Part shown: positions 1 to 20,360 of the stretch, piece by piece | Layout: every line of letters begins with the position of its first letter | Position numbering within the stretch: the first letter of the stretch is position 1 | Origin: Cytophagaceae bacterium | Lineage (GTDB): Bacteria > Bacteroidota > Bacteroidia > Cytophagales > UBA9547 | DNA length: 60,150 nt | NCBI GenBank assembly: GCA_027488865.1 | Contig: JAIYAU010000004.1 | Coordinates: forward strand, 1-60,150 | Reading direction: 5' to 3' | The notes under the pieces: model-generated | What the model saw: only the letters and a program-made list of their open reading frames with translations | Told to the model about the DNA's origin: nothing | Databases searched by the model: none | Position numbers and translations under genes: made by a program

Positions 1-516
1 GAACCTTTTTTTTTTTTTTTTTACTTTGAAAGGTCAGTAGTACTTATTTGTGCCCACAACGAAGAAGGTACTTTCGGTTTTGTTTTGAATCAACCAACAG
101 AAATGACTTTAAACGAAGTATTGGAAGATGAAACCTTGCCACCTCTTCCAGTCTATCTAGGCGGACCAGTAGAGCAAAATACACTACATTTTCTCCATAA
201 AGCTGGTGAAAAAATATCAGCGGCAGTACAAATAGATGAAAATATTTGCTGGAGTGGAGATTTTGACCAGGTGAAACAACTTATTAAAGATGGAGCTATT
301 CAACCTAGTGAAATTAAGTTTTTTGTGGGGTATTCTGGCTGGGAAAATGGCCAATTATCAAAAGAATTAAATGAAAATACATGGATTATGAGTAAATTTG
401 AGCCGGATTTTATATTTAATCCTGATAGCCAAAATATGTGGAAAGAGGGCATGAAAAAACTAGGAGGTAAATATAAAATCATGGCCAACTACCCTGTTGA
501 TCCAAGATTAAATTGA
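1..516 (+). CDS. YqgE/AlgH family protein, 5' partial
   Basis: The frame is open from base 1 and continues upstream of the window; the first ATG (85) is internal. The translation carries the family hallmarks: EP near the start, then FERSVVLICAHNEEGTFGFV and a NQPT segment, a GGPV motif (about residues 54-57), and the conserved late segment FVGYSGWENGQL. YqgE/AlgH proteins are small soluble proteins of poorly defined function, usually about 180-200 residues; roughly 20 N-terminal residues are missing here. Five consecutive Phe codons from a 17-T block (6-22) occupy the place where relatives normally have a mixed segment containing Asp, so the first residues are suspect. The stop is followed by 141 bases without a gene. 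Confidence 0.93.
   Translation, partial: EPFFFFFYFERSVVLICAHNEEGTFGFVLNQPTEMTLNEVLEDETLPPLPVYLGGPVEQNTLHFLHKAGEKISAAVQIDENICWSGDFDQVKQLIKDGAIQPSEIKFFVGYSGWENGQLSKELNENTWIMSKFEPDFIFNPDSQNMWKEGMKKLGGKYKIMANYPVDPRLN
6..22. repeat. 17-base T block inside yqgE
   Basis: Seventeen consecutive T at the window edge. It covers the third base of a Pro codon, five Phe codons and the first base of a Tyr codon, and the yqgE frame stays open across it. Two similar 17-base blocks occur at 13883-13899 and 20344-20360. See findings. Confidence 0.9.
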
Positions 517-657
517 TTTTTTTTGGTAAATTAATTATATTTAGCCCAAATATTGACCAAACTCACTTATACAACCAATAAGATATTTGGATAGTATCTA
601 CAAATGTTAAATATTTGCTTGATTTTTAATAAAAGCTACGATTAAATTGTTTTACGC

Positions 658-2478
658 ATGAGACTTATTTGGGCAATTCAGTACTCCAACGAAGCTAACA
701 GTGATAGCACCCTGTTGGATAGCAACGAATTGAATTTAAACGCTGACCATGACCTGGTGGCTGATGAGGCCGTGGAGGAAATTAACTACAACACTTTCTC
801 TAAACAGGATCTTATTATAGCTATTAAAAAAAATACTGTTGGTCTTAATCCCATGTCGGCTTATAGCGAAGCCAAAAAGATAAAAGCATGCTTTGAGGTA
901 ATTGTAGACTCAGAAAAAAGCATGGCCCTCGACAAATTCTTAGCAGAAGGTGGTGAAGAAGATAGCTTTGATTACAAGGACATTGATGAGGAAGAGTTTG
1001 ATAAGATATTTAAAACGTTAAAAGATAACAATTCTAAACATTTTAACGAACTTAACGCGCAGAAAGACAGTAATCTAAAGCGTAAAAATGAGTTGTTAGA
1101 CGCACTACGCGAATTGGTAACAGGTGAAGAAACAAATACAAGCATTGTTAAGTTAAAAGAAATTCAAGAGAGTTGGAAAAAAACAGGTTCCGTTCCTTCC
1201 GAACATGCTAAAACTCTCTCTGCCAATTACAGCGCCTTGTTGGATAGATTTTATGATAATCGTTCAATTTTCTTTGAACTGAAGGAATTAGACAGACGAA
1301 AAAATCTAGAAATCAAAAAAGATCTTTGTGAAAAGGCAGAAAAATTAGTAGATAATACATCTGTTAATCAGGCACTTAAAGAACTTAACGAATTACATCA
1401 AGAGTTTAAAAACATTGGTCCAGTACCCAAAGATGCACAAGAGGAGTTATGGCAACGTTTTAAAGCTGCTTCTGATAAAATTTATGAAAATAAAAAGGCT
1501 TATTTAGATTCACTTAATCAACAATATGAAGAAAATCTGGCCAAGAAAAATGAGTTAATAGCCAAACTAGAAGAATTTAGTTCATTTAATGCCGATAAAC
1601 TTGAGTTGTGGAACAAAAAAGCTGATGAACTTATTGTGCTAAGAGAAGCTTGGAATAAAATAGGTTTTGTTTCAAAAGAGAAATCAAAAGATATTAATAA
1701 AACGTTTTGGGCAATATTTAAACAGTTTTTTAATAATAAAAGAAATTTTTACAAACAAATTGAACAAATAAGGGCAGACAATCTAGCCTTGAAAGTGCAA
1801 TTATGTGAGCAGGTTGAAAAAATAGTTGAGCAAGGCGATTCATCAGAAAAATATGCAGATGAGATTAAATCTTTTCAAAGAAAATGGAAAGAAATTGGCC
1901 CGGTTCCCTCGAAAAAAAGTAATGAAATATTTGAAAGATTTAAAAAATCTTGCGATGCCTTTTTCGATCAGAAGCGCCAACAATCTAATGTGGTAGAAAA
2001 AGAATATGAAGAAAATCTTAAACGTAAAATAGAAATTTGTGAATCACTTGAAAGCTATTCAGGCGATGAGTTGCTAAAACTTCAAGATATTATGATTCAG
2101 TGGGAGGGGATAGGTTTTGTTCCTAAAAAGGAAATAAATACCATCAAAACGAGGTTTTCACAGGCGATTGAAGCTCACCTAGATAAATTTTGTAAAACTG
2201 ATGAACAAAAGAATAAGTTGAAACTAACTTATCAAATAGCCTTGTTTAAAGATTCTCCAGATGCTAAAAATAAATTTCAAAAGAAAGAAAAGGCAGTAAG
2301 AGCTAAAGTTCAAGAGTTGGAAAATAATATTTCCCTTTGGAGAAACAATTTGGAGTTTTTTGGCAAGTCTAAAAATGCACAACAATTAAGAGATGAGTTT
2401 GATGTAAAAATTGTGGAAGCAAATAAAGAAATTGCGGTTTTAAAGGATCAATTAAAAATACTAAAAAATTCACATTAA
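658..2478 (+). CDS. DUF349 repeat protein
   Basis: A 606-residue, Lys/Glu-rich, mostly helical protein. After an acidic N-terminal segment of about 130 residues it contains five DUF349-type repeats of about 70-75 residues, each with a core like W-K-x-I/T-G-x-V-P followed by an F-x-x-F/Y segment and a KK/KR-rich helix: WKKTGSVPSEHAK, FKNIGPVPKDAQ, WNKIGFVSKEKSK, WKEIGPVPSKKS and WEGIGFVPKKEI. It ends in a coiled-coil-like segment. DUF349 proteins are widespread in Bacteroidota and their function is unsettled. There is no signal peptide or membrane segment, so it is probably cytosolic. An in-frame TAA at 643-645 limits the start to 658. The tRNA-Thr gene follows after 52 bases. Confidence 0.9.
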   Translation: MRLIWAIQYSNEANSDSTLLDSNELNLNADHDLVADEAVEEINYNTFSKQDLIIAIKKNTVGLNPMSAYSEAKKIKACFEVIVDSEKSMALDKFLAEGGEEDSFDYKDIDEEEFDKIFKTLKDNNSKHFNELNAQKDSNLKRKNELLDALRELVTGEETNTSIVKLKEIQESWKKTGSVPSEHAKTLSANYSALLDRFYDNRSIFFELKELDRRKNLEIKKDLCEKAEKLVDNTSVNQALKELNELHQEFKNIGPVPKDAQEELWQRFKAASDKIYENKKAYLDSLNQQYEENLAKKNELIAKLEEFSSFNADKLELWNKKADELIVLREAWNKIGFVSKEKSKDINKTFWAIFKQFFNNKRNFYKQIEQIRADNLALKVQLCEQVEKIVEQGDSSEKYADEIKSFQRKWKEIGPVPSKKSNEIFERFKKSCDAFFDQKRQQSNVVEKEYEENLKRKIEICESLESYSGDELLKLQDIMIQWEGIGFVPKKEINTIKTRFSQAIEAHLDKFCKTDEQKNKLKLTYQIALFKDSPDAKNKFQKKEKAVRAKVQELENNISLWRNNLEFFGKSKNAQQLRDEFDVKIVEANKEIAVLKDQLKILKNSH

Positions 2479-2481
2479 GAT

Positions 2482-2512
2482 TTTGGATTTTAATTTGAAC
2501 TCCATATCTTTG
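2482..2512 (+). promoter_or_regulatory. Bacteroidota promoter for tRNA-Thr
   Basis: TTTG at 2482-2485 and TATCTTTG at 2505-2512, 19 bases apart, match the -33 TTTG / -7 TAnnTTTG pattern. The predicted transcript start is near 2517, about 14 bases before the tRNA. Confidence 0.65.
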
Positions 2513-2530
2513 CAGTCCCAAATAATTAAA

Positions 2531-2603
<73 letters not shown>

Positions 2604-2607
2604 CAAC

Positions 2608-2635
2608 AAAAGGAAACAGAAATGTTTCCTTTTTT
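2608..2635 (+). terminator. Intrinsic terminator after tRNA-Thr
   Basis: Inverted repeat AAAAGGAAACA / TGTTTCCTTTT with a four-base loop and a run of T, placed right behind the tRNA. Confidence 0.85.
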
Positions 2636-2875
2636 GTTTTCAAATCTAATATCAGTAGCTTATTATCTTCGCACAATACTACTAACCCACAAATAAATAT
2701 TTTTTGTTTTAATCATATACAAATATTCGTGAACTGTTTTTGAAATCAATTCCAAGTCTTGTCATATTCAATTAGCAAGTATTTATAAAATAGTTACGAA
2801 TGTGGTATTTAATTCCTTAAAATGAGTCATTAATAAATAATATCAATTTTTTTAGTGAAACAATAAGAAATTTGC

Positions 2876-2905
2876 TTTGTATTTTACATCAAAATTTTAT
2901 ATTTG
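2876..2905 (+). promoter_or_regulatory. Promoter for the DUF2795 gene
   Basis: TTTG at 2876-2879 and TATATTTG at 2898-2905, 18 bases apart. The predicted start is near 2910, giving a leader of about 20 bases before the ATG at 2931. The rest of 2636-2875 is AT-rich with no ORF, RNA gene or repeat that I can support. Confidence 0.7.
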
Positions 2906-2930
2906 CAAACCGTTTTAAAATTTTAATATT

Positions 2931-3152
2931 ATGTACTGGACACTTGAATTAGCTTCCTATTTGGAAGATGCACCATGGCCTGCCACTAAAGACGAATTGA
3001 TAGACTTTGCAGTACGTTCAGGAGCGCCTATGGAGGTAGTAGAGAATTTACAAGAGCTTGAAGATGACGGACAGCCTTATGAAAATATTGAAGAAATTTG
3101 GCCTGATTACCCAAGCAAAGATGACTTCTTTTTTAATGAAGATGAATATTAA
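2931..3152 (+). CDS. DUF2795 domain protein
   Basis: A 73-residue acidic protein that begins MYWTLELASYLEDAPWPATK and continues with DELIDFAVRSGAP and IEEIWPDYP. This is the highly conserved small DUF2795 protein found across Bacteroidota, full length. Its function is not established; the helical fold and strong conservation suggest a housekeeping role. It is a single-gene unit, with its own promoter upstream and an intrinsic terminator at 3199-3230. Confidence 0.95.
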   Translation: MYWTLELASYLEDAPWPATKDELIDFAVRSGAPMEVVENLQELEDDGQPYENIEEIWPDYPSKDDFFFNEDEY

Positions 3153-3198
3153 TTGAAATAAATATATTATTTGCTTAGTAAGAGTGACCTAATTAAAG

Positions 3199-3230
3199 TC
3201 CTAAGGAATATTATCACCTTAGGATTTTTT
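3199..3230 (+). terminator. Intrinsic terminator after the DUF2795 gene
   Basis: TCCTAAGG (3199-3206) pairs with CCTTAGGA (3217-3224) and is followed by six T. Confidence 0.85.
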
Positions 3231-3288
3231 GTAGATTTTTTATCAAGAATTATCTAAGTAGTTTTTTACTAAATCAGAAATAAATTTC

Positions 3289-3753
3289 ATGACTATCAAA
3301 ACAACTTTACCTATTTTAGTTTTTATTTTTTTCGTGGCGTGTAAGCCATTTAAGATGGTGGAAATAAGTAGTATTGATTATGTAAATGTGGATAAGATTG
3401 ATAATGGGAATGTTAAACTTAATGTAGGGGTTAAACTCAATAACCCTAATAATTACGCCATCAAAATAAAGGGTGCTGAATTAAATGCAAATATTAACGA
3501 GTCCGTAATTACTAAGATATCAAATGTATCTAAAATAAAAATTGCTGGAAATACGCACGAAACACAGCGGATTGAACTAAATATTAGCAGTTCACAACTT
3601 ACTTCGCTCATCCCAATCCTTATGATGCGTGGTAAGGTTAAATTGTTAATTAAAGGTTATATTAAGGGTAAGGTAGGTATTATTGGTAAAAAGATTCCGA
3701 TTGATTTTAAGGAAGATATCAATATGAAAGATTTATCAGGGATTGGATTTTAG
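3289..3753 (+). CDS. LEA type 2 family lipoprotein
   Basis: A 154-residue protein with an N-terminal hydrophobic segment ending in a lipobox (FFVAC, Cys at residue 18), so it is probably a lipid-anchored envelope protein. The rest alternates short strands and contains the LEA14/WHy-type signature with an asparagine-rich turn, VGVKLNNPNNYAIKIKGAEL. LEA type 2 domains are small beta-sandwiches; bacterial members have no defined biochemical role. It precedes nuoI by 78 bases but nuoI has its own promoter, so it need not belong to the complex I group. Confidence 0.8.
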   Translation: MTIKTTLPILVFIFFVACKPFKMVEISSIDYVNVDKIDNGNVKLNVGVKLNNPNNYAIKIKGAELNANINESVITKISNVSKIKIAGNTHETQRIELNISSSQLTSLIPILMMRGKVKLLIKGYIKGKVGIIGKKIPIDFKEDINMKDLSGIGF

Positions 3754-3795
3754 TTAAACCTTAGCGAGGTAAATTTTATGTAAATTAAGTTTTCA

Positions 3796-3826
3796 TTGTT
3801 AATTGCGCAATCCTTAGCTATTTTTG
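3796..3826 (+). promoter_or_regulatory. Promoter directly before nuoI
   Basis: TTG at 3796-3798 and TATTTTTG at 3819-3826, 20 bases apart. The -7 box ends six bases before the nuoI ATG at 3832, so transcription would start at or next to the start codon. Confidence 0.65.
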
Positions 3827-3831
3827 CAACA

Positions 3832-4485
3832 ATGAAAGGTTATTTTAAAGATATTTTTGATACCTACAAGTCACTAAAGATAGGGATGTCCCTAACGCTA
3901 AAACATTTAGTAGCTGCTCGTAATCCGCATAAACCGTTAGCGATAAATAATAAAGAATATTTTCAGCAAAGTGAAGGAATTGTGACCTTAGAATATCCGT
4001 ACGAGGCTATTCCCGTGCCTGAAAATGGACGATATAGGTTATATAATGAAATGGATGATTGCATAGTATGTGATAAATGTGCTAAAATTTGTCCGGTTAA
4101 TTGTATTGATATTGAGCCTATTAAAGCTACTGATGACATTGGCCTTACCTCAGATGGCACCATGAAAAGATTGTATGCGGCTAAGTTTGATATAGACATG
4201 GCCAAATGTTGCTTCTGCGGGTTATGTACAACGGTTTGCCCTACGGAATGTCTTACAATGACCTCAACCTACGATTTTAGTGAGTGGGATGTACGAGCCA
4301 TGAATTATGAATTTTCTAATCTTTCCAAGGAAGAGGCTGAGGAGAAAAGAAGGTTGTTAGAAGAAAAAAATCGACAAAAAGAACTCTCAAAAAACGAAAT
4401 ATCTAAGCCTGAAGACTCCCAAAACGCTTCTAAAGTGGTGGCTAAGCCTATTTTTAAACCAGTAATTAAAAAGAGTACGGAATAA
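3832..4485 (+). CDS. nuoI: NADH-quinone oxidoreductase subunit I
   Basis: Peripheral-arm ferredoxin-like subunit of complex I, passing electrons through two [4Fe-4S] clusters toward quinone. Two CxxCxxCxxxCP motifs are visible in the 217-residue protein: Cys 77, 80, 83, 87 and Cys 126, 129, 132, 136. The C-terminus from about residue 170 is a charged Lys/Glu extension beyond the usual ferredoxin core. I chose ATG 3832 over an upstream TTG (3796) because family members start close to MKGYF and because the TTG lies inside the promoter. nuoJ starts 3 bases after the stop, and nuoK follows; no other nuo gene is in the window. Confidence 0.95.
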   Translation: MKGYFKDIFDTYKSLKIGMSLTLKHLVAARNPHKPLAINNKEYFQQSEGIVTLEYPYEAIPVPENGRYRLYNEMDDCIVCDKCAKICPVNCIDIEPIKATDDIGLTSDGTMKRLYAAKFDIDMAKCCFCGLCTTVCPTECLTMTSTYDFSEWDVRAMNYEFSNLSKEEAEEKRRLLEEKNRQKELSKNEISKPEDSQNASKVVAKPIFKPVIKKSTE

Positions 4486-4488
4486 TAA

Positions 4489-4986
4489 ATGAATGTCGCG
4501 ATAGTGTTAATTCCGCTGATGCTGCTAATTCTCTCATCGGCAATATGTATGGTGTTTTTGAAAAATCTGTTACACTCGGCTTTAATGTTGATCATCAGCT
4601 TATTACTTATAGCTGTTTTATATGTTTTTTTGTTTGCTGATTTTTTGGCAGTTTCTCAGATATTGATTTATGCTGGAGGAATTTTGGTTATAATTTTATT
4701 TGGGATAATGCTTACACAACAAATAGGAGTAGTTAGCTATGCAGTGATTAATTCCAACAAGTGGTATGGTATAATTTCTTGTAGTACACTTTTTTTAGTG
4801 ATGGGATATTATATTTTGCAATTAGAGTTAGGTGCACCAGTTGCTACCAATCCAATCGGTTCCACTATTCAACCGATTGGTAAATCCTTGCTTACTACTT
4901 ATTTATTGCCGTTTGAGTTGGTTACAATTTTACTTACTGTTGCCTTGATAGGCGCAGCGTTAATAGCTAATAAGGTTAAAAGATAA
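4489..4986 (+). CDS. nuoJ: NADH-quinone oxidoreductase subunit J
   Basis: A 165-residue membrane subunit of complex I with five predicted transmembrane helices. It carries the NuoJ signature in its third helix, ADFLAVSQILIYAGGILVII, where conserved Tyr and Gly residues lie near the quinone/proton pathway. Length and hydropathy match the family. It lies 3 bases after nuoI and 8 bases before nuoK, so all three are probably translated from one transcript. Confidence 0.95.
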   Translation: MNVAIVLIPLMLLILSSAICMVFLKNLLHSALMLIISLLLIAVLYVFLFADFLAVSQILIYAGGILVIILFGIMLTQQIGVVSYAVINSNKWYGIISCSTLFLVMGYYILQLELGAPVATNPIGSTIQPIGKSLLTTYLLPFELVTILLTVALIGAALIANKVKR

Positions 4987-4994
4987 TAGCCATC

Positions 4995-5306
4995 ATGATA
5001 ATAGAACTAAAACTTTATTTGTTAATAGGAGCGGCACTTTTTTGTTTGGGCATTTTGGCCGTTATAATTAAAAGAAATGCTATTATGACACTAATGGGCA
5101 TTGAATTAATATTTAATGCCGCTAACGTAAATCTGGTGGCATTTAGCCGGTTTGACCAAAATTTTATTCAAGGTCAAATGGTTGCACTTTTTATCATTAT
5201 TATAGCGGCGTGTGAAACAGCTGTTGGATTAGCTCTAATAATGCAAATTTATAATTATTTTAAAACCATTGAACTTGACAAAATAAATGAATTAAAAGAT
5301 AATTAA
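4995..5306 (+). CDS. nuoK: NADH-quinone oxidoreductase subunit K
   Basis: A 103-residue, three-helix antiporter-like (MrpC-like) subunit of complex I. The second helix includes MGIELIFNAANVNLVAF, with the conserved membrane Glu needed for proton translocation, and the third contains IIIAACETAVGLALI with the second conserved Glu. It ends the nuoIJK group; the next gene converges from the other strand after 7 bases. nuoL, M and N, which usually follow nuoK, are absent here. Confidence 0.95.
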   Translation: MIIELKLYLLIGAALFCLGILAVIIKRNAIMTLMGIELIFNAANVNLVAFSRFDQNFIQGQMVALFIIIIAACETAVGLALIMQIYNYFKTIELDKINELKDN

Positions 5307-5313
5307 CTGTAAG

Positions 5314-5769
5314 TTATAACTTAACAGTTGTGATACCTTCTCCTCCGTTATTATGACTGTCATCCTCAATCGATTTTATTTCTTTATAAGTTCTTAATAC
5401 ATTTTTTGCTGTTGTTTTTATGGTACCATTTCCACGTCCATGGTGAATTCTGAACTCTTTAATACCCAACAACAAGGCATCGTCTATTTGTTGTGTGAGC
5501 AATACCATCACCTCATCTTTCATTTTACCTCGTAAATCCAAATCAAATTTAAAATTCATTAACTTGTCTTTGGTATCCAGCGTAGTTTTTACTTCCTCAG
5601 GGTAGTCAATATCAGGTACATGATTGTCAATTCTTTCTACACGATTTTTTTTAACAGTGGTTTTAAGCAAGCCAAAAATGACCTCCAAATCGCTTCCCTT
5701 AAATCCAACTACTTCACCTATAGCACTTTGCCCAGCTATTTTCACAAAGTCACCAACTTTAAAATCCAT
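5314..5769 (-). CDS. Stand-alone MutS2 C-terminal-like protein (KOW-like + Smr)
   Basis: A 151-residue protein that corresponds only to the tail of MutS2. Residues 1-50 are the small barrel (FKVGDFVKIAGQSAIGEVVG, then VIFGLLKTTVKK), and residues about 75-151 are an Smr domain with LDLRG, IHHGRGNG and a final GGEGITTVKL. The MutS2 clamp and ATPase domains are missing: its start codon sits 2 bases after the stop of the S41 peptidase gene, leaving no room for them. Smr domains act as nucleases on DNA or RNA, and MutS2 Smr domains are implicated in recombination control and ribosome rescue. It is probably co-transcribed with the protease gene. Confidence 0.85.
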   Translation of the reverse strand: MDFKVGDFVKIAGQSAIGEVVGFKGSDLEVIFGLLKTTVKKNRVERIDNHVPDIDYPEEVKTTLDTKDKLMNFKFDLDLRGKMKDEVMVLLTQQIDDALLLGIKEFRIHHGRGNGTIKTTAKNVLRTYKEIKSIEDDSHNNGGEGITTVKL

Positions 5770-5771
5770 AG

Positions 5772-7445
5772 TTATTTGCTAGTTTCAATTTTTGAAGCCT
5801 TATCAAACATTTTCAACGCTTTAATGTAAATTTCATCATTCTCATTAATAATTGGGAAAAATCCTTCGTTTTTCCAAATGCTTCTTGCTATAAATGCCTT
5901 CATATTATTTTTTATCATGCTTTTTGACCTGTTAAATTGTGAAGCATTATACTTTACATCCGATTTTTTGCCTAAATCAATTAATTCATTGAGCATTTTA
6001 TCTGTTACCTCAAATTTATTTTTAAACTCCACAAAGGACATTTTTTCTAATACAGCTTTGTTTTCATTTGCGTAGTTAAGCGTGTATTCTCTAAGTACAC
6101 TTTTGTTGTAAAGTTCAGAGAGATAAGAGGTATAACTAGTAGTGTCTCTAGGTACAAAAATATCGGGCATTATACCACCTCCGCCATAAACAATTCTGCC
6201 CTTGGTAGTTTTATATTTAAGTGAGTCATTAAATTTAATGCTATCCGCTGAGAAAAATTCACCATGTTTATATCGTTTCACAATGTCCATGTCGTAATCT
6301 TCTGAGGCAGTGTAAGGCTTTTGGATACTTCTACCACTAGGGGTATAATATCTTGATATGGTGAGTCTTAGTTCGCCGCCCTCATTGAGTTGTATTGGCA
6401 TTTGAACAAGACCTTTGCCAAAGGTGCGGCGACCAACAATTATTCCTCTGTCGTTGTCTTGAATAGCTCCTGCTAAAATTTCAGAAGCGGAGGCGCTACC
6501 TTCATTTACTAAAACAACCACCGCACCATTTTCAAAATCTCCACTTTTATATGCATTAAATTTTTGGTCGTACCTTGAATCTTTTCCGTTGGTGTACACA
6601 ATTAGTTTGTTTTCCCCAAGTAATTCATCTGCAATGTCGGTGGCACGTTCCAGATAACCACCAGGATTATCTCTTAAGTCTATCATGAGTTTTGTTGCTC
6701 CTTGAGTTCTTAAACTTACCAGTGCTTTTTTAAATTCTTGATGGGTATTTGCCGCAAATCTACTTATTTTAATATACCCTGTTTTAGAATCAATCATATA
6801 GGCCACATCTACAGAGTAAGTAGGTATTTTATCTCTTGTGATGGTATAGTTCAAAACATCCTTAGCACCTTTTCTCCAAATGCTTACTTTAACTTTTGTT
6901 CCTTTAGGACCTCTTAATTTACTAAATACAAATTGTGTACTTACTTCTTTACCAGTAGCTACGGCATTATCTATTTTTAAAATTTTATCTCCAGATTTTA
7001 ATCCAATTGCTTCTGAAGGACCTCCACTAATAGGAGTTACTACATAAATAGTATCTTTTATTATTTGAAACTCAATACCAATTCCTTCAAAATCTCCCTC
7101 AAGTTGGCTTTTTGCTATCTGTAAATCTTTAGCAGGAATATATACGGAATGCGGATCGAGTTTTTCCAACATTTTAGATATTGCCTCTTCTATTAAATCT
7201 TCGGTGTTTACCGTATCAACATAATCTCTATCAATATAAGTTAAAATTTCCCTAAATCGTGATACGTTTTTGTTGATGTCATTGGTCTTGTTATCCTTAC
7301 TAAACATATTAGCTCCTATAAAAATACCACCAGCTACTGCTAGGCCAACGATGAGAGGGAGTCTAATTTGCCAACCTTTGTTATTAATAACTTCTTTTTG
7401 AGTAACATTTGAAGAAGTTGACGAATGCTTATTTTCCGTTTCCAA
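5772..7445 (-). CDS. S41 family carboxy-terminal processing peptidase
   Basis: A 557-residue serine protease of the CtpA/Prc type. One N-terminal transmembrane helix (about residues 27-46) anchors it, with the bulk probably periplasmic. A PDZ domain follows (about 118-195, GIGIEFQIIKD, SGDKILKIDN). The catalytic domain has the DLRDNPGGYL segment, the Ser-containing GSASASE motif (316-322) and the general-base Lys in FGKG (344). Family members trim C-termini of envelope proteins. The residues after about 400 are an extension that I cannot assign. It heads a two-gene unit with the Smr protein. Confidence 0.93.
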   Translation of the reverse strand: METENKHSSTSSNVTQKEVINNKGWQIRLPLIVGLAVAGGIFIGANMFSKDNKTNDINKNVSRFREILTYIDRDYVDTVNTEDLIEEAISKMLEKLDPHSVYIPAKDLQIAKSQLEGDFEGIGIEFQIIKDTIYVVTPISGGPSEAIGLKSGDKILKIDNAVATGKEVSTQFVFSKLRGPKGTKVKVSIWRKGAKDVLNYTITRDKIPTYSVDVAYMIDSKTGYIKISRFAANTHQEFKKALVSLRTQGATKLMIDLRDNPGGYLERATDIADELLGENKLIVYTNGKDSRYDQKFNAYKSGDFENGAVVVLVNEGSASASEILAGAIQDNDRGIIVGRRTFGKGLVQMPIQLNEGGELRLTISRYYTPSGRSIQKPYTASEDYDMDIVKRYKHGEFFSADSIKFNDSLKYKTTKGRIVYGGGGIMPDIFVPRDTTSYTSYLSELYNKSVLREYTLNYANENKAVLEKMSFVEFKNKFEVTDKMLNELIDLGKKSDVKYNASQFNRSKSMIKNNMKAFIARSIWKNEGFFPIINENDEIYIKALKMFDKASKIETSK

Positions 7446-7478
7446 TAGAGAATTGAAGTTTTAAAAATTGTAATTAAG

Positions 7479-11837: not shown

Positions 11838-11899
11838 TAAATCTTATTACTAATGCTGTCACTTTTTTTTATGCTTCTTTATAAACAAATGGTTTTGTA

Positions 11900-12853: not shown

Positions 12854-12868
12854 TCGGAGTAATTGGTG

Positions 12869-15250
12869 TTAAATTCTAAAGTTTGTAGCAAGTTTTATAA
12901 TTAAATTTCTATTGGGTTCAGCAAAAGCATAAGCTCCATATCTATAGTATAAACTAATTCCTAGCCCTGTTTTTAGTCCAAAACTATGTATCTCAATTAA
13001 ATTCCCCAACGTGATACCAGATTCAAAAAAACCTTTTTCCATTGTTTTAAATTGAATAAACTCGTGTTTGTTTTTGTTGTTAAGGGCACCGTAACCAATA
13101 TTTTGCGAAAGTTCTAAGGAAGGTCTAAATCGTTTAAACTTGTTCAATTTTCCAAGAAAAATAGTGTAAAATAAAGAAGTGTACTGATTAGAAACAAATT
13201 CATTAAAGGCCATTGTTTCAAAAGAGTTGTGAATAACTGCATAAAAATTTCTAAAACTACCTTTACTGTTATATAATTTCATGTAAGGTAAATTCCCTTC
13301 GGCATATCCACCAACAACTTGTATGATATGTCTACCATAACCTAAAATTTTTCGGTCATAGGAAATTTTTATATCTATCTTGGTATAGTTAAAATCTCCG
13401 AATGTGGAGAATATTCCTTTATAATATTGGAGTTGTACTACCGGAAATTTGGTACTTAATACTACCTTTTTATCCTCATATTTAATACATTTTTCTCCAA
13501 AGGCATATCTAAATCCAGCACCAAGTTCGTTAAATTTATAAAATGAACGGTTATTGGATTCATAAAAATAGGTATATTGAGGATTAAGATTTTCTATTTG
13601 ATATGATACAAATGTTTTTAGATATTTAATTGGTGTCCATGTGGTTATCAAATTATATTTTTCAGTGTAATCCATTCTTGGTATTCTATATTGGCGTAGA
13701 GGCTCACTACTATATTGAAGTTTATCAAAAATAAATTCGGTATAACCAGGTTCAAATAGTTCTTTTTGTGCAAGCGTTTTTAGTTGTAAATCAGTTTTTT
13801 TATTTATGACCCAAATGGTGTTTAGCCCATATTTTTCTAAATTATCCTTAAGACCATAGCCGTAGTATCCACCAAAGCCATATTTTTTTTTTTTTTTTTC
13901 GTTAGTTTCCAAGCCTAAACCTAAACGCAAGCCTTCAAAATCGTTATAATTCAACAGTTTATTAAGCCTAAGATTAACATACCTAATTGGAACTAAACCA
14001 CTATAGATGCGGCTACCAACGTTAATAACCTTGTCAACTTTCTTAAAATTTCCTAAATTTTGAAAGAAAGATATTGTGTTTTTGTCAATATTATTGAACT
14101 GTTCTTGCCTATTGGTATTCCAAATTGAATCTGATTTGTAGTCAGATGAATCTTGATATTCTACCAAACAATCATCAAAACTACTTTTAGTAATGCTTGG
14201 AAGTTCATGAAAATTATAAATATAACTTTTAAATGTGGCTAAAAGTCTAATTTTGTGGTTGGTAGTTTCTTTGGTTAATAGACTTGTAGTTGTAATTACA
14301 GGAAATCTTATTTCAGTTTTACCAACTGCTTCATATTTTTGTGCTACTTCAATTTTGGATTTTTGAGGGCCAATAGGTGCCACTTGAAAGTATTGAACGG
14401 ATAAATTTTTACTATTCACATATAATAATCCTTGAAGACCTTCAAAAAATGTGCGTTTATTAGGTGTAAATTTAATTACAACTAATGTCTGAGATTGTTC
14501 TTGAATCGTATCAATAATTTTATAATCGTATCTTTTTAAGCCTCTGTTAGACAATGGGCTAACGTGTAAATGGTTTGCTATATTTAATTGAGTATTATAC
14601 ACTGATAAAAACTGAAGGCCAGAATTTATATTAAACAAGGCTGTGTTTTCAAGTCCAGTAACCCTTGTAGCAAATACAGTTTCTTTTTGGTTGGTTTTAT
14701 TTTCAAATAGTTTTTCTGAAAGAGATTCCATTAAAAAGAAATGGTGTTGGCCTCCTTCCCAATGAATTCTCTTTTTTGAAAATTTCTTTATTATGTTGTT
14801 GAGAATTTGTGTGGTAGTTTGCTGTTCATCGGTATCTATTTGAAATTTATTATAAGTGGAGTAGGAGTGAGGCTGGTTATAATTTCCTTGTTTGGCTTCA
14901 ATTACCTTTTTTATCAAGCTATCACTTACAATATCTCTTACTTCTTTATCTTGATTAAATAATAATGGAAACAATCTGATTTCTAGCTCTTTGGTTATTG
15001 TGGAGTCAATAACCATTATGAGTGGTAGCTCGGGATAATGCTTGAATTTTAATTTTTTAATATGAGCATTGGGAATTAAAAATTCTCCATTAATATCGGA
15101 AAGATAATTAATACTATCATTAACCTGAATAGATGTAAAAGGAATTGGCTTTTTTGAAAAAAAATCAACCGTTCTTCCCTTGACTATGGTTCCTTGTGCA
15201 AAGTTAAATAAGGGTAAAAAGATTAGAAAAAATTTACCTAAATTATTCAA
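12869..15250 (-). CDS. DUF5686/carboxypeptidase-regulatory-like outer membrane protein
   Basis: A 793-residue exported protein. A signal peptide (ending near FNFAQG) is followed by a carboxypeptidase regulatory-like domain (about 22-100, VKGRTVDFFSKKPIPFTSIQ, SDINGEF) and then the long DUF5686 region rich in paired aromatic strands, ending in a typical barrel C-terminus. This architecture is common in Bacteroidota and predicts an outer membrane barrel with a periplasmic plug-like N-domain; its function is unknown. Residues about 465-469 are five Lys from a 17-A run on this strand, where relatives usually have a mixed segment of the same length. Confidence 0.85.
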   Translation of the reverse strand: MNNLGKFFLIFLPLFNFAQGTIVKGRTVDFFSKKPIPFTSIQVNDSINYLSDINGEFLIPNAHIKKLKFKHYPELPLIMVIDSTITKELEIRLFPLLFNQDKEVRDIVSDSLIKKVIEAKQGNYNQPHSYSTYNKFQIDTDEQQTTTQILNNIIKKFSKKRIHWEGGQHHFFLMESLSEKLFENKTNQKETVFATRVTGLENTALFNINSGLQFLSVYNTQLNIANHLHVSPLSNRGLKRYDYKIIDTIQEQSQTLVVIKFTPNKRTFFEGLQGLLYVNSKNLSVQYFQVAPIGPQKSKIEVAQKYEAVGKTEIRFPVITTTSLLTKETTNHKIRLLATFKSYIYNFHELPSITKSSFDDCLVEYQDSSDYKSDSIWNTNRQEQFNNIDKNTISFFQNLGNFKKVDKVINVGSRIYSGLVPIRYVNLRLNKLLNYNDFEGLRLGLGLETNEKKKKKYGFGGYYGYGLKDNLEKYGLNTIWVINKKTDLQLKTLAQKELFEPGYTEFIFDKLQYSSEPLRQYRIPRMDYTEKYNLITTWTPIKYLKTFVSYQIENLNPQYTYFYESNNRSFYKFNELGAGFRYAFGEKCIKYEDKKVVLSTKFPVVQLQYYKGIFSTFGDFNYTKIDIKISYDRKILGYGRHIIQVVGGYAEGNLPYMKLYNSKGSFRNFYAVIHNSFETMAFNEFVSNQYTSLFYTIFLGKLNKFKRFRPSLELSQNIGYGALNNKNKHEFIQFKTMEKGFFESGITLGNLIEIHSFGLKTGLGISLYYRYGAYAFAEPNRNLIIKLATNFRI
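13883..13899. repeat. 17-base T block inside the DUF5686 gene
   Basis: Seventeen consecutive T on the plus strand. On the coding (minus) strand it encodes the end of a Glu codon and five Lys, in frame, between ETNE and YGFGGYYG. Confidence 0.9.
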
Positions 15251-15307
15251 GGTACAAATTAATTGATAGGTTTAATGTCAAAAGCTAAACCTAGTATAAT
15301 TACCAGT

Positions 15308-15610
15308 TTACTTAAAAATTTTATTAATAAGATTTTTGGCCTCTTCGGTTATCTCAGTAATTTTTTCTGTAGTTTCTTTAGTGGCCTCATGGATTTTTTC
15401 ATTAGCAGTATTGCTCAATTTTTCCATTTTTTCCTTTACTAAAGGGGCATAATCTAACTCTTTACCAATTAGAAGATCTTCTATTTGACTACCTAATGAG
15501 GCTGGTAATTTCTCTTTTAGGAGGGTTAATATAATTGAATATGCTTGTGAGGCATGTTCAGTAGATATTCCTGTTTCTCTTTGAATTTTATCGATAATCT
15601 GATGCATCAT
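15308..15610 (-). CDS. Small helical protein (DUF2267-like N-terminus)
   Basis: A 100-residue protein. The first half (IIDKIQRETGISTEHASQAY, then ILTLLKEKLPASLGSQIEDL) resembles the DUF2267/YidB-like helical module found in small bacterial proteins. The second half is a Lys/Glu/Thr-rich amphipathic helix (KIHEATKETTEKITEITEEA). No signal peptide. It lies 53 bases downstream of the MarR gene on the same strand. Start at 15610 or the next Met codon (15607). The family assignment is tentative. Confidence 0.6.
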   Translation of the reverse strand: MMHQIIDKIQRETGISTEHASQAYSIILTLLKEKLPASLGSQIEDLLIGKELDYAPLVKEKMEKLSNTANEKIHEATKETTEKITEITEEAKNLINKIFK

Positions 15611-15663
15611 TAATTAGTTAAGTTCATTTTAACAAATATACTTAACTTTATTTTAGCTCACAA

Positions 15664-16113
15664 TTAGCCGCGCAATTTATCTAGTATATTATTAAGTTGT
15701 GCTATCTCCTCAGGGTTGAGTTTGTGCATTACACTATCTAATTGATTAATTTCCAAATCAATTGTAGATAGCAAGCTTTGTCCTTTAGTGGAAATAACTA
15801 CATCTACCGAACGCCTGTCAAGCTTGCAAATTTTTCTTTCTACAAGTTTTTTTAAACGTAACCTCTCCACTATTCTTGATGCATCACACATCTTATCTAT
15901 CATTCGTTCTCTTATATAGTTCACACGTGCTGGCTCAGGAAATTTACCTCTCAGTATTCGTAAAACATTAAATTGTTGTGGAGTTAGGTCAAAAGCAGCA
16001 AAAAATTCTTTAGATTGAGAATCTAGCCAATTAGTTGTAAATAAAATATTTACATAAGCTTTATGATATTCGTTTTTAAATTCCTTTTGTTTAATTTCTT
16101 CTTCTAGTTTCAT
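15664..16113 (-). CDS. MarR family transcriptional regulator
   Basis: A 149-residue winged-helix regulator. The N-terminal dimerisation helix is followed by the DNA-binding unit: FDLTPQQFNVLRILRGKFP, then VNYIRERMIDKMCDASRIVE as the helix-turn-helix, and LVERKICKLDRRSVDVVIST as the wing with its conserved DRR. MarR proteins repress nearby genes and release on binding small ligands. It lies downstream of a yceI-like gene on the same strand, a pairing often seen in Bacteroidota, but a hairpin separates the two. Confidence 0.92.
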   Translation of the reverse strand: MKLEEEIKQKEFKNEYHKAYVNILFTTNWLDSQSKEFFAAFDLTPQQFNVLRILRGKFPEPARVNYIRERMIDKMCDASRIVERLRLKKLVERKICKLDRRSVDVVISTKGQSLLSTIDLEINQLDSVMHKLNPEEIAQLNNILDKLRG

Positions 16114-16165
16114 ATTATAGCCTATTTAACAATCTTAATATTTAACCAATTATACCTTATAATAA

Positions 16166-16196
16166 AACAGCCTTAGACACAAGGTCTAAGGCTGTT
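16166..16196 (-). terminator. Hairpin between yceI-like and marR genes
   Basis: A perfect 13-base inverted repeat, AACAGCCTTAGAC / GTCTAAGGCTGTT, with a five-base loop. On the minus strand four T follow, so it is probably a terminator for the yceI-like gene. A regulatory role in the marR leader cannot be excluded. Confidence 0.65.
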
Positions 16197-16220
16197 ATGC
16201 GAAAATACTGTTTTATTTGT

Positions 16221-16811
16221 TTATTTTTTAATAAATTCTAGATTGATTAAAAGATCAACATTTTCCCCTATGGCCACACCACCAGTTTCAAGCGCAGAAT
16301 TATATTTTAAATTATAATCGTACCTATTTAATGTACTTACAATTTTAAATCCTGTAATTGTCTGTCCATATGGACTTTTTGTAATACCTCTGTACACTAC
16401 ATCAAAAGAAACTTCTTTTGTAACGCCATGCATTGTAAGTGTACCTACCAGTTTGTAAGCTTTATCATTTACCTTGGTAAAAGATTTACTTTTAAAGGTA
16501 ATAGAAGGATATTTGGCAGCATCGAAAAAATCTGCACTCTTTAAATGTTTATCACGGTTTTCGTCATCTGTGTCAATGCTATTTACGTCGATGGAAAAAT
16601 CAATTGTAGCACCGTTGAAATCATCAGCCTTAGGTGAAACGATTGTACCTTCAAATTTTCTGAAATGACCTGTTGTTTCAGAAACTAAAAGATGTGTTAC
16701 AGAAAACTGTACCTTAGCATGAGATTTGTCAGAAACCCATGTTGTTTGCGCTTGTGTAGCAAGAGTTACTACTAAAAATGCTACTGAAAATAAGAAATTG
16801 TACTTTTTCAT
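16221..16811 (-). CDS. YceI family periplasmic protein
   Basis: A 196-residue exported lipocalin-like protein. The signal peptide (MKKYNFLFSVAFLVVTLATQ) is cleaved before TTWVSDKSHAKVQFSV. Diagnostic YceI segments follow: FRKFEGTIVSP, FNGATIDFSIDVNSIDTDDE, RDKHLKSADFFDAAKYPSI and TMHGVTKEVSF. Family members bind isoprenoid-type lipids and are often induced by stress. I chose 16811 because it opens the signal peptide; an in-frame ATG at 16868 would prepend residues unlike a signal sequence. It lies 63 bases after the aldehyde dehydrogenase gene. Confidence 0.93.
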   Translation of the reverse strand: MKKYNFLFSVAFLVVTLATQAQTTWVSDKSHAKVQFSVTHLLVSETTGHFRKFEGTIVSPKADDFNGATIDFSIDVNSIDTDDENRDKHLKSADFFDAAKYPSITFKSKSFTKVNDKAYKLVGTLTMHGVTKEVSFDVVYRGITKSPYGQTITGFKIVSTLNRYDYNLKYNSALETGGVAIGENVDLLINLEFIKK

Positions 16812-16874
16812 TTTTGTTAAATTTTTAAAGTTATAATTCCATAACATGTTTAAACAATTAAAGTTCAAACATCG

Positions 16875-18239
16875 TTAATTATTTTTTATCCAAACTGTTT
16901 TTGCGTTTGTAAACTCCTTGATTCCCAGTGCAGAAAGTTCTCTTCCAAACCCACTATTTTTTACCCCTCCAAATGGTAGACGTACATCAGACCGAGATAT
17001 TCCGTTTATAAAAACTGCTCCAACTTCTAACTGATCAATAAAAATATTAGCTATTGTGTGATCGTTAGTCCATACTGATGCTGATAAACCATATTGTGAA
17101 TCGTTGGCTACTTCAATAGCTTGTTCCACAGTACTTACAGCTATGATGGAAAAAACAGGCCCAAATATTTCTTCATTATAGGCAGGCATTTTATTGGTAA
17201 TTTCTGAGAGCACGATGGGCTTTAAAAGATTCCCTTTTAGTTCTAAACTTCCAAATAATAATTTAGCTCCTCTTTTAATGCATTCATCAGCTTGTTTTAT
17301 CACCATTTGAGCCAAATCTAATCTAGCCATTGGACCACAAGAAACATTTTCATCCTTCGGGTCTCCATAATTTACCAAATTTAAATTTTCAACCAACCTT
17401 TGGGTAAAAGTGTCCAGTACTTTATCATGAACAATAAAACGTTTGGCTGCAATACAACTTTGACCATTATTTATTAGTCGTGATTTGATGGCATTTTCAA
17501 CTGCCAACTCAACATTTGCTGAAGGAAGCACAATAAAGGGGTCGGAACCGCCCAGCTCTAAAACGCATTTTTTTAAATATTTTCCGGCCAAACTTGCTAC
17601 TGATTGTCCAGCAATGGTGCTACCAGTAAGTGAAACAGCTCTTACAATTGAATGGGCTATAACTGATTCAATATGGCCAATATTTATAAACAATGTTTGA
17701 AAAACGCCAACAGGAAATTCAGCATTTTGAATGAGATCTGCTAAATACAATGTACACCTAGGCATATTAGGGGCAGGCTTTAAGAGACAAACATTACCAG
17801 CCATTAAAGTTGGCGCAATAAAACGTATTACCTGCCAAATGGGGTAATTCCAAGGCATTATGCCTAAAATTGCTCCTAAAGGTTCATACTTAATATAACT
17901 TAAGGACGCATCGGTATACACATCCTCCTGTTTTAACATATCTTCTGCTTGATAGGCGTAATATTCACATGCAATTACCGATTTTTCAATTTCTGCCATA
18001 GATTCAGCCAATGGTTTACCCATTTCTTCTGTTATCAATTGGGCTAAAGTTTGCTTTTGATTGACTAATAAATTGGCAAGTCTTAATAAATGGCTGGCAC
18101 GACTATTGTAGTCTAGGTATTTCCAAGTCTTGTAAGCAGATTGGGCTTTTCCTAAGCATGAAGCAATTTCTTCGGTGCTTAACAATTCGAAGCTTTCTAT
18201 TTGGGTATTGTTAAATGGATTGATGGAAGTGTAGTTCAT
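16875..18239 (-). CDS. NAD(P)-dependent aldehyde dehydrogenase (succinate-semialdehyde type)
   Basis: A 454-residue aldehyde dehydrogenase. The catalytic Cys is 262 in NNGQSCIAAKRF, the general base Glu is 228 in LELGGSDPF, and the oxyanion Asn is 131 in PWNYP. The sequence lacks the longer N-terminus of betaine-aldehyde enzymes and resembles the short succinate-semialdehyde dehydrogenases (GabD/Sad-like); the substrate is not certain. It is the first gene of a minus-strand run with the YceI and MarR genes. Confidence 0.9.
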   Translation of the reverse strand: MNYTSINPFNNTQIESFELLSTEEIASCLGKAQSAYKTWKYLDYNSRASHLLRLANLLVNQKQTLAQLITEEMGKPLAESMAEIEKSVIACEYYAYQAEDMLKQEDVYTDASLSYIKYEPLGAILGIMPWNYPIWQVIRFIAPTLMAGNVCLLKPAPNMPRCTLYLADLIQNAEFPVGVFQTLFINIGHIESVIAHSIVRAVSLTGSTIAGQSVASLAGKYLKKCVLELGGSDPFIVLPSANVELAVENAIKSRLINNGQSCIAAKRFIVHDKVLDTFTQRLVENLNLVNYGDPKDENVSCGPMARLDLAQMVIKQADECIKRGAKLLFGSLELKGNLLKPIVLSEITNKMPAYNEEIFGPVFSIIAVSTVEQAIEVANDSQYGLSASVWTNDHTIANIFIDQLEVGAVFINGISRSDVRLPFGGVKNSGFGRELSALGIKEFTNAKTVWIKNN

Positions 18240-18337
18240 GGTATCGATGTAAATAAACTAGTTAACACAAATGTTCGAAAAGTTTAATTTGCTTTTGATT
18301 GAGGTAATACTTAAAAATGATGTAGACAAAATTACTT

Positions 18338-18366
18338 TTTGAATTAAAATTAACTGCTTAAATTTG
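18338..18366 (+). promoter_or_regulatory. Promoter for the 18385 gene
   Basis: TTTG at 18338-18341 and TAAATTTG at 18359-18366, 17 bases apart. The predicted start is near 18371, 14 bases before the ATG. Confidence 0.55.
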
Positions 18367-18384
18367 ACTAATTAATTTATTATT

Positions 18385-18927
18385 ATGAAAACAATTAATG
18401 CTTTTATTTTTATAACCTTATTACCAGTTGTACTATTCGGGCAAGTTGGAAAAGATTTCCCTTTGATTGAAGGACAAACTGTGGAAGGAATTACCATTTC
18501 ATTGCCAAAAGCAGTTAAGGGTAAATATGCCCTTATTGGATTGGCATCAAGTTTAGCAGCTCAGGAGGATTTAAACACTTGGTTACAGCCGATGTACGAC
18601 AATTTTATAAGAAAAGCAGAAAAAGGTCAACTTTTTGACGATTCTTATGATGTTTTCACTTATTTTGTTTCAATAATTAATGGAGCAAATAAAGCCGCAT
18701 CTGGAAGTATAAAAAAGCGATTTAAGGAACAGGCTGATAAGGAGTTATTGCCACTAGCGATTTTTTATGAAGGTGACCTAAAACCACTAAAGGAATATTT
18801 GTCCATTAAAAATACAGAAACTGTTTATTTTTATTTGTTGGACGCTAATGGCAAGATAGTACATGTGGTTTACGGAAAATATTCAACTGCCAAGATGGAA
18901 GATATAGAAAAGCTTTTGGATAACTAA
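18385..18927 (+). CDS. Exported thioredoxin-fold-like protein
   Basis: A 180-residue exported protein (signal peptide ending at VVLFGQ). The body has the pattern of a thioredoxin-like fold, KGKYALIGLASSLAAQEDL near residue 50 and a closing FYLLDANGKIVHVVYGKYS, but with no CxxC redox pair. The strand order and the helix after GLASS recall ATP10-like proteins; this is a weak resemblance. The gene is a single unit with its own promoter and ends 6 bases before the convergent recO. Confidence 0.65.
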   Translation: MKTINAFIFITLLPVVLFGQVGKDFPLIEGQTVEGITISLPKAVKGKYALIGLASSLAAQEDLNTWLQPMYDNFIRKAEKGQLFDDSYDVFTYFVSIINGANKAASGSIKKRFKEQADKELLPLAIFYEGDLKPLKEYLSIKNTETVYFYLLDANGKIVHVVYGKYSTAKMEDIEKLLDN

Positions 18928-18933
18928 ACTAGC

Positions 18934-19611
18934 CTAATCAAAAACCTCTTTTAAAATGGCTAATGAATTTAAGTTATTGACGGAGGATATGTGAAGTGCA
19001 TAGAATTTAAGTAGTATTTCCAACGTTTCTCTTCTTTCTTGGTTAGATATTATCAATGGAGTACCGTACTCAGTGGTAATTAGCTTGTTAATATTGTTCA
19101 AATGAATGGTGGTAAACACAAAAGAATTGAGCTGTAGGGCTATTTCTTCAGCGTCCGCAGCGGCAATTCCAAGATGAGTAGCAAATTTTAATAAAAAATG
19201 TAGGTGAAAATTTTCATAATTTTTTTCGAGGGTATCCAAAATTTTTAAAGAGGTCTGAAGAAAATAGAATAATTGAGGGTTGGACATTTCTTCTACCAAA
19301 ATCTTAAGTAGCAACTCCTGTAAGAAAAATAGTATGGCATTTTTTTTACTATTGTAAGCTATATGATGATAGGGATGTTTACAATTGATTTCGGCGATCC
19401 TTTGTAGGTTGGCATTTTCTTTATGGTAAATGACCAAATCTAATATGGTTAAAGGCTGAAAAAGGCTTATTTTATTCTTATTACTTTTGCTTCTTGCTCC
19501 ATTTACCAGATAAGTTTGTAAACCAAATTTTTCTGTATAGATCTTTGTTATTATGGAAGTTTCACCATATCTAATAAAGTTTAGTACGATGGCTTCAGTT
19601 TTATGTAACAT
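18934..19611 (-). CDS. recO: DNA repair protein RecO
   Basis: A 225-residue recombination mediator that helps load RecA at gaps together with RecR. The N-terminal OB-fold begins KTEAIVLNFIRYGETSIITK and continues with YTEKFGLQTYLVNGARS. The central part is helical (FFLQELLLKILVEEMSNPQL). There is no zinc-binding Cys set, as in many Bacteroidota members. The ATG overlaps the stop of porZ by one base (TAATG), so the two are probably translationally coupled. recO beside porZ is a recurrent arrangement in Bacteroidota, which supports both calls. Confidence 0.92.
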   Translation of the reverse strand: MLHKTEAIVLNFIRYGETSIITKIYTEKFGLQTYLVNGARSKSNKNKISLFQPLTILDLVIYHKENANLQRIAEINCKHPYHHIAYNSKKNAILFFLQELLLKILVEEMSNPQLFYFLQTSLKILDTLEKNYENFHLHFLLKFATHLGIAAADAEEIALQLNSFVFTTIHLNNINKLITTEYGTPLIISNQERRETLEILLKFYALHISSVNNLNSLAILKEVFD

Positions 19612-20276
19612 TAATCAACAATTGCAATTTTAGAAACTAGGCCATCTTTACCATCGTTGGAAGCACTAAAAATTAGATAAACCCCTGTTTCAGCCCTTTT
19701 GCCTTGTAAATCACGACCATCCCAAGTGACTAGGCCTCCATAGGCACGTGTTTGGAAAATTAACTTTCCGTTGGTATCGGTTATTTTAACTATAGCATTT
19801 TCTGTAACACCGTTAATTGCAATAAGCCCTTCGTAATCTGGTCTAACAGGATTTGGAAATACCGAAACATTATTTTTGGCAACTTCGGATTCGTTGGCTG
19901 TACTTCGAAAGGAAGTTAATCCTTTATCAGTTGAAAAGAAAACCTCTCCAGTTGCACTATTTATACCTATATTGAGTATGTTATTTGAAGGTAGTGGGCT
20001 ATTTTCTGTAGTGAAGTGATAAATTAAGGTACCACCGTCGGCCGAGAAAAGCCAAGCTCCATCATTAGGTGTACCAATCCATTTTCTATCGCCACCATCA
20101 GGAGTAATACAGGTTACAATTTTTTCTCTAAACAAAGCCCTAGAATCGTATATTGGAACGCTGGCATCAAATCCACTCTTATTTGTTAACACTTTTTCAG
20201 GGTTATAAAAAACAGATATTCCATTATCAGTTCCTATCCATATTTCTCCGTTTTTAGCTTTTGCCATACAGTACAC
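19611..20276 (-). CDS. porZ: PorZ, C-terminal part with T9SS sorting domain (downstream of in-frame stop)
   Basis: C-terminal part of porZ, in the same frame as the upstream part and separated from it only by a TAA at 20357-20355 within a 17-base A-rich run. The frame is open right from that stop, with KLTVGVGNGNLTSDYVYCMA before the first Met at 20276. Residues 1-130 continue the propeller (GEIWIGTDNGISVFY, DRKWIGTPNDGAWLFS). The last about 85 residues form a type A T9SS C-terminal sorting domain (VSVFPNPVRPDYEGLIAING, then GVYLIFSA and VSKIAIVD). PorZ sits at the cell surface and takes part in attaching A-LPS to T9SS cargo. Confidence 0.85.
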   Translation of the reverse strand: MYCMAKAKNGEIWIGTDNGISVFYNPEKVLTNKSGFDASVPIYDSRALFREKIVTCITPDGGDRKWIGTPNDGAWLFSADGGTLIYHFTTENSPLPSNNILNIGINSATGEVFFSTDKGLTSFRSTANESEVAKNNVSVFPNPVRPDYEGLIAINGVTENAIVKITDTNGKLIFQTRAYGGLVTWDGRDLQGKRAETGVYLIFSASNDGKDGLVSKIAIVD

Positions 20277-20343
20277 ATAGTCACTTGTAAGATTGCCATT
20301 CCCTACACCAACCGTTAATTTTTTTGCTTGGGTAGCAGTAGGA

Positions 20344-20360
20344 TTTTTTTTTTTTTATTT
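20344..20360. repeat. 17-base T-rich block containing the porZ stop
   Basis: Thirteen T, one A, three T on the plus strand. On the coding strand it reads AAA TAA AAA AAA AAA AA, giving Lys, stop, three Lys and the start of an Asn codon. Both sides remain in one frame. Confidence 0.9.

What the first reader, a model, noticed from the sequence alone, without database searches (positions are those of the whole stretch)
6..20360. Three 17-base T-rich blocks that seem to overwrite coding sequence without changing frame
Blocks at 6-22 (17 T), 13883-13899 (17 T) and 20344-20360 (13 T, A, 3 T) have the same total length and the same strand bias: T on the plus strand, although yqgE runs plus and the DUF5686 and porZ genes run minus. 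So one gives poly-Phe and the other two poly-Lys. In each case the frame is intact on both sides, and the number of residues matches what I recall of relatives (a mixed segment with Asp in YqgE; a mixed basic segment after ETNE in DUF5686; about five residues before NPTA in PorZ). Ordinary slippage would change lengths and break frames. Same-length replacement suggests overwritten or low-quality sequence. If real, the blocks would be an odd, strand-specific homopolymer system.
Basis: partly seen in the sequence, partly recalled or inferred. Interest (0 to 1): 0.7.

Follow-up and report, generated by a model that had tools for sequence, protein, structure and literature searches.

The report
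Poly-T blocks are assembly errors
Short runs of T that replace real sequence in this draft genome are sequencing or assembly mistakes, because another contig of the same assembly still carries the normal sequence of the same gene, so this is a data-quality problem and not a new biological system.

Summary
In detail: T17 at 6-22, T17 at 13883-13899, T13-A-TTT at 20344-20360. It belongs to a genome-wide set of 22 T/A runs of 12-25 bases, most often 17, set apart from ordinary runs by an empty class at 11.
In all 16 coding tracts where both sides can be judged, the frame matches across the run.
Homologues show equal-length replacement: PyrB 21/21, SufS 19/19, MiaA 20/21, LeuS 80/80, YqgE 22/23, DUF5686 12/12. 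PorZ is inconclusive.
Decisive: the window is a whole contig whose first 18 bases overlap the end of contig C6. C6 reads GAACCTTTTTTAGCAGAC, the normal start of the same yqgE gene; the window reads GAACC plus T. Contig C9's start conflicts likewise with the ends of C4 and C15. For most other tracts no native copy was seen; the verdict there rests on homologues and pattern.
C9 also ends in Illumina adapter. The blocks are in-register errors; which step made them needs the reads. No strand bias: 12 T, 10 A.

The parts
6..22 (+). Erroneous T17 block in yqgE (PF02622, AlgH-like); the native sequence here begins TTTTTTAGCAGAC
   Evidence: Contig C6 end reads GAACCTTTTTTAGCAGAC; window start reads GAACC+T17+ACTTT; 22 of 23 relatives keep the spacing of EPFLxDxNF-like sequence
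1..516 (+). yqgE, 3' part; the 5' part lies at the end of contig C6 of the same assembly
   Evidence: ORF list; PF02622 E=2.4e-47; one match to the C-terminal part in the genome; frame ...SPKSGILLLSEPFLAD at the C6 end
13883..13899 (+). Erroneous T17 block (A17 in coding sense) in the DUF5686 gene; the fourth overwritten residue is S in 10 of 12 relatives
   Evidence: 12 of 12 closest loci aligned have the same length, none with poly-Lys
12869..15250 (-). DUF5686 family gene carrying the block
   Evidence: PF18939 E=7.6e-25
20344..20360 (+). T13-A-TTT block in porZ; contains an in-frame TAA on the minus strand
   Evidence: Sequence, codons ATT AAA TAA AAA AAA AAA AAT; same frame open on both sides; equal length not decidable
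19611..22019 (-). porZ, split by the stop inside the block into 20355-22019 and 19611-20354
   Evidence: PF21544 PorZ N-terminal beta-propeller E=1.8e-27; Reg_prop in the second piece E=2.6e-07

Best explanation
The T blocks are errors of the draft assembly. At about 20 places in the genome a stretch of real bases (spans of 7 to 20 in the cases that can be compared inside the assembly) has been replaced, base for base, by T, or by A in the other orientation; native T or A bases beside it make the run look longer. Because letters change and positions do not, frames survive, conserved protein motifs are lost, and a stop codon sometimes arises. Shown here: conflict between contigs of the same assembly at yqgE and at the start of C9, and equal length against homologues for six proteins. 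Inferred: that the remaining tracts have the same cause, and that the error arose in Illumina base calls, read error correction or de Bruijn consensus at weak spots, for example cycles without usable signal written as A, or reads pulled towards a poly(A/T) k-mer. These cannot be told apart without reads.
For: (1) yqgE: contig C6 ends GAACCTTTTTTAGCAGAC; contig C33 (the window) starts GAACCTTTTTTTTTTTTT; 18-base overlap, 7 mismatches, all to T, no indel. The C6 tail translates to ...ILLLSEPFLAD, the YqgE N-terminus of relatives, and the YqgE C-terminal part matches once in the genome. (2) Contig C9 start against the ends of C4 and C15: 74 aligned bases, 16 mismatches, all within positions 10-29, 15 of them to T and one T to A, no indel. 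(3) A tract near the end of C4 reads T16 where the end of C15 reads T9CAGTGGG; this is the only difference in the last 160 bases. (4) L045: six sister repeats of the same gene read, for example, TATGTTTGGAGAAATGG or TATGTTTGGAAAAATGG where the tract reads T-A13-TGG. (5) Homologues aligned with the tract masked: PyrB 21/21, SufS 19/19 (YN in 19, YNT in 18), MiaA 20/21, LeuS 80/80, YqgE 22/23, DUF5686 12/12 equal in length. (6) 16 of 16 judgeable coding tracts keep frame, at run lengths 13, 16, 17, 18 and 20; 2 of them hold an in-frame TAA. (7) 3 of 22 tracts lie within 100 bases of a contig end, two of them within 10. (8) Contig C9 ends with 23 bases of Illumina adapter. (9) The three relatives with most long runs (G004, G010, G014) show a falling tail of lengths from 12, with no peak at 17. 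(10) This class of failure is described: correction tools alter reads near homopolymers and in low coverage, and SPAdes contigs often end with a poly(A/T) k-mer (PMC6545690: abstract and passages seen).
Against: No reads, coverage or qualities could be seen. The C6/C33 overlap is only 18 bases, 11 of them identical. C9 against C4/C15 lies in a repeated element, so it could be another copy and not the same locus; C4 against C15 is a comparison of two copies that diverge beyond 160 bases. For 18 of the 22 tracts I found no native counterpart in the stretches of this genome that I held (not the whole genome). The native sequence under the C9 block has only 4 T in 19, which fits poorly with drift towards a similar k-mer. 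PMC6545690 used no bacterial data and says that error correction often has little effect on such small genomes. PorZ is inconclusive (10 of 25 loci equal), and the S46 tract faces a 3-residue gap in a distant solved relative.
Confidence: 0.95

Rival explanations
1. Real hypermutable homopolymer tracts (contingency loci) that grew by polymerase slippage and switch genes on and off.
For: Long A/T runs in coding sequence, including the secretion gene porZ and proteins with type IX secretion signals; one tract (L051, T25 near the start of a subtilase gene) was not compared and could be genuine.
Against: Slippage changes length; here length equals that of homologues and motifs are replaced. Housekeeping genes (leuS, miaA, pyrB, sufS) are hit. 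Length classes 11, 14 and 15 are empty. A native version of yqgE is present in another contig.
Confidence: 0.02
2. A real in-cell process that overwrites DNA in register with poly-T or poly-A in part of the population, so both versions exist in the sequenced culture.
For: Both versions of yqgE coexist in one assembly; blocks are A/T only, with no G/C run of 10 or more.
Against: Up to 18 genes would be damaged at once in one genome, several of them conserved housekeeping genes; tracts lie in coding and non-coding sequence alike (18 and 4 of 22); 3 of 22 sit at contig ends; an adapter remnant shows unclean data; no mechanism is known to me.
Confidence: 0.03
3. Native poly-Lys or poly-Phe segments of these proteins, tolerated because frames are intact.
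For: 14 of 16 judgeable coding tracts have an intact frame without a stop.
Against: No homologue segment printed carries the homopolymer; SufS YN is invariant in 19 of 19, and 64 of 80 LeuS relatives read IFxQLF or IFxKLF.
Confidence: 0.01

Closest known systems
Illumina read and assembly errors at poly(A/T) k-mers and in low coverage (Heydari et al. 2019, PMC6545690; abstract and passages seen)
   Same: Poly(A/T), contigs that break there, reads altered near homopolymers, Illumina data
   Different: That work used eukaryotic data and reports inconsistent corrections; in the passages seen it does not describe in-register blocks of about 17 T in a bacterial assembly
Phase-variable homopolymeric tracts (contingency loci; from recall)
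   Same: Long single-base runs inside genes
   Different: Here length relative to homologues is unchanged, motifs are replaced, housekeeping genes are hit, and a native version exists in the same assembly

Membership tests
Assembly or sequencing artefact | Conflict between overlapping sequences of the same assembly | tested here: met
   C6 end against C33 start; C9 start against C4 and C15 ends. Seen for 2 tracts, with paralogous copies for 2 more; not seen for the other 18 in the stretches held
Assembly or sequencing artefact | Absent from homologues at the same place, with collinear flanks | tested here: met
   Six proteins; PorZ inconclusive
Assembly or sequencing artefact | Enriched at contig ends | tested here: met
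   3 of 22 tracts within 100 bases of a contig end in a 4.33 Mb, 64-contig assembly
Assembly or sequencing artefact | Low read support or quality at the block | not testable with these tools
   No reads held
Phase-variable homopolymeric tract | Length differs from relatives by slippage | tested here: not met
   Equal length in every locus compared for PyrB, SufS, LeuS and DUF5686, and in 20 of 21 and 22 of 23 for MiaA and YqgE
Phase-variable homopolymeric tract | Length variation within the population | not testable with these tools
   No reads held
Strand-specific homopolymer system | Consistent strand bias | tested here: not met
   12 T and 10 A runs in contig orientation; in genes both poly-Phe and poly-Lys occur

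The most novel reading that the evidence does not exclude
An unknown cellular or library process replaces about 7-20 bases in register with poly-T/A on individual DNA molecules, so that native and overwritten molecules coexisted in the sample.
Probability: 0.03. Interest if true: 0.85.

Novelty: not a real feature. Interest (0 to 1): 0.08.

Why it matters
It matters mainly as a warning. Up to 18 predicted proteins of this genome carry false poly-Phe or poly-Lys segments or false stops, and yqgE is split between two contigs; annotation would treat these as real. Because the replacement is in register, checks for frameshifts would not see most of them, while a scan for A/T runs of 12 or more with a gap in the length distribution does.

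Tried and rejected
Slippage and contingency loci: rejected on length and motif evidence. Strand-specific system: rejected, 12 T and 10 A. Ordinary tail of a low-GC genome: rejected, the length distribution has two peaks. Of 28 relatives, 17 have at least one run of 12 or more, most of them only 1 or 2; the three with most show a simple falling tail (11 of 11 tracts of G004, 9 of 9 of G010, 20 of 42 of G014). Fixed 17-base unit: rejected, lengths are 12-25, and inside the assembly the changed span is 7 bases for C4, 18 for C9 (20 with a T-to-A change) and at least 7 for yqgE, where the overlap ends. A block always extending a native T run: suggested by yqgE, C4 and L045, not true of C9. G/C blocks: no run of 10 or more. 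Oligo(dT) priming and conversion of N to A were considered from recall and could not be tested. The genome-contig scan with DUF5686 found no relative. BLAST of the tract flanks against the held stretches of this genome gave second copies only for L032, L033, L034, L045, L046 and L050 (L032 and L050 not followed; the best L046 copy, 51% alike, says little). Paper searches: in the listings seen (4 of 4, 15 of 42, 12 of 705 and none) only PMC6545690 bore on this, and I saw no title on in-register T blocks.

Full report
What is there. The three blocks are in the sequence as described, with one correction: on its coding strand the porZ block reads ATT AAA TAA AAA AAA AAA AAT, so it holds an in-frame stop and the gene falls into two ORFs. 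The window is a complete contig, G000:C33, of a 4,326,669-base, 64-contig draft genome, and the first block begins 5 bases from the contig's end.

How unusual. In the window, A/T runs number 178, 54, 16 and 3 for lengths 6 to 9, then none until one of 13 and two of 17. Over the genome there are 123 runs of exactly 9, 13 of exactly 10, none of 11, and 22 of 12 or more (searches list the same 22): 12, 13, 13, 16, 16, eight of 17, five of 18, two of 19, 20 and 25. Of the 22, 12 are T and 10 are A in contig orientation. There is no G or C run of 10 or more. Of 28 relatives, none from the same genus, 17 have at least one run of 12 or more. The three with most were looked at: G004 12x7, 13x3, 15x1 (11 of 11 tracts); G010 12x8, 14x1 (9 of 9); G014 12x10, 13x6, 14x2, 15, 16 (20 of 42). 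None has a second peak. The same frame is open for at least 100 codons on both sides of 13 of 22 tracts here, against 0 of 11, 0 of 9 and 4 of 20 in those relatives (my count from the tables).

Frame. Eighteen of the 22 tracts lie in ORFs; L032, L033, L034 and L040 do not. For two (L042, which is yqgE, and L051) one side is too short to judge. In the other 16 the same frame is open on both sides, though the downstream side is short in L037, L049 and L050 (41, 17 and 20 codons). Run lengths are 13, 16, 17, 18 and 20; 14 have no stop and 2 (porZ and L045) have a TAA at the edge of the run.

Equal length. Proteins were aligned to relatives with the tract masked. PyrB: 21 of 21 equal, typically IFALQK or IFALKK where this genome has FFFFFL; three further loci (a fragment and two weak matches) were left out. 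SufS: 19 of 19 equal, YN in all and YNT in 18; five weaker or second-copy loci were left out. MiaA: 20 of 21 equal; three second-copy loci left out. Matches for which no locus was fetched were not used. YqgE: 22 of 23 have the spacing of EPFLxDxNF against EPFFFFFYF; one is a residue shorter. DUF5686: 12 of the 12 closest loci equal, S at the fourth overwritten place in 10; 17 weaker loci were not used. PorZ: 27 loci tried (two of them the same G011 gene), 25 covered the site, 10 equal; too variable to decide. For the S46 peptidase (L038) a distant solved relative is 3 residues shorter there, inconclusive. The other coding tracts were not compared.

Native sequence in the same assembly. I looked at 64 of 64 contig starts and 61 of 64 contig ends, C29 being N throughout. 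The end of contig C6 is the missing start of yqgE: it translates to ...SPKSGILLLSEPFLAD and ends GAACCTTTTTTAGCAGAC. The window starts GAACC followed by 17 T. Over the 18 overlapping bases there are 7 differences, all native base to T, and no indel. The YqgE C-terminal part matches once in this genome, so C6 and C33 are very probably two versions of one locus. Contig C9 starts ATGTTTGCA-T19-AGAGGGG; the ends of C4 and C15 read ATGTTTGCAAAAGAAATCCAATCATCCTTGAGGGG. Over 74 bases there are 16 differences, all in positions 10-29 and in register. C4 itself carries T16 where C15 has T9CAGTGGG, the only difference in their last 160 bases. Inside one gene (L045), six sister repeats carry normal sequence where the tract has A13. 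For the other 18 tracts no native counterpart was found in the stretches held.

Assembly quality. Contig C9 ends with AGATCGGAAGAGCGTCGTGTAGG, Illumina adapter (recognised from recall; found at 1 of the contig ends examined). Four contig pairs overlap by exactly 119 bases, which suggests a de Bruijn assembler with k near 119 (inference). Three of 22 tracts lie within 100 bases of a contig end, two within 10.

Explanation. In-register replacement, conflict between contigs, loss of conserved motifs in housekeeping genes and adapter remnants together mean that the blocks are errors, not DNA of the organism. The literature describes the class of error: correction tools alter reads near homopolymers and in low coverage, reads with poly(A/T) have low quality, and contigs often end there; the same paper says that small genomes are often little affected (PMC6545690, abstract and passages seen). 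Which step failed is open. The C9 case, where the native sequence has only 4 T in 19, speaks for base calls or unknown bases written as A/T over drift to a similar k-mer; this is inference.

Verdict. The strand-bias idea and the fixed length of 17 do not hold, and the porZ block holds a stop. It is not a biological feature.

Noticed in passing
G000:C9 last 23 bases (locus L398): Illumina adapter sequence left at a contig end.
   Followed up: yes
Ends of contigs C4, C5, C8, C9, C15, C36, C38, C41, C44, C51, C53, C61 (among loci L330-L449): Part or all of a multi-copy element, in several copies with a native T9CAGTGGGCAAATGG segment, followed in some by ATGAAATACAAGGACTTTCC (coding not tested); its copies coincide with assembly breaks.
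   Followed up: partly
L045; related copies at C5, C7, C21, C43, C59 and C60 ends: Tandem repeats of 231 bases in a coding frame, with related arrays at many contig ends; domain type not tested.
   Followed up: no
L051:1487-1511: A25 (T25 in coding sense) close to the start of a subtilase-family gene (PF00082); the longest tract, not compared, could be genuine or an error.
   Followed up: no
G000:C29 (all 2,588 bases) and 2,075 bases within the first 3,000 of C55: Stretches that read as N in the held copy.
   Followed up: no
window 2531-2604 and 35135-35209: tRNA-Thr (TGT) and tRNA-His (GTG).
   Followed up: no
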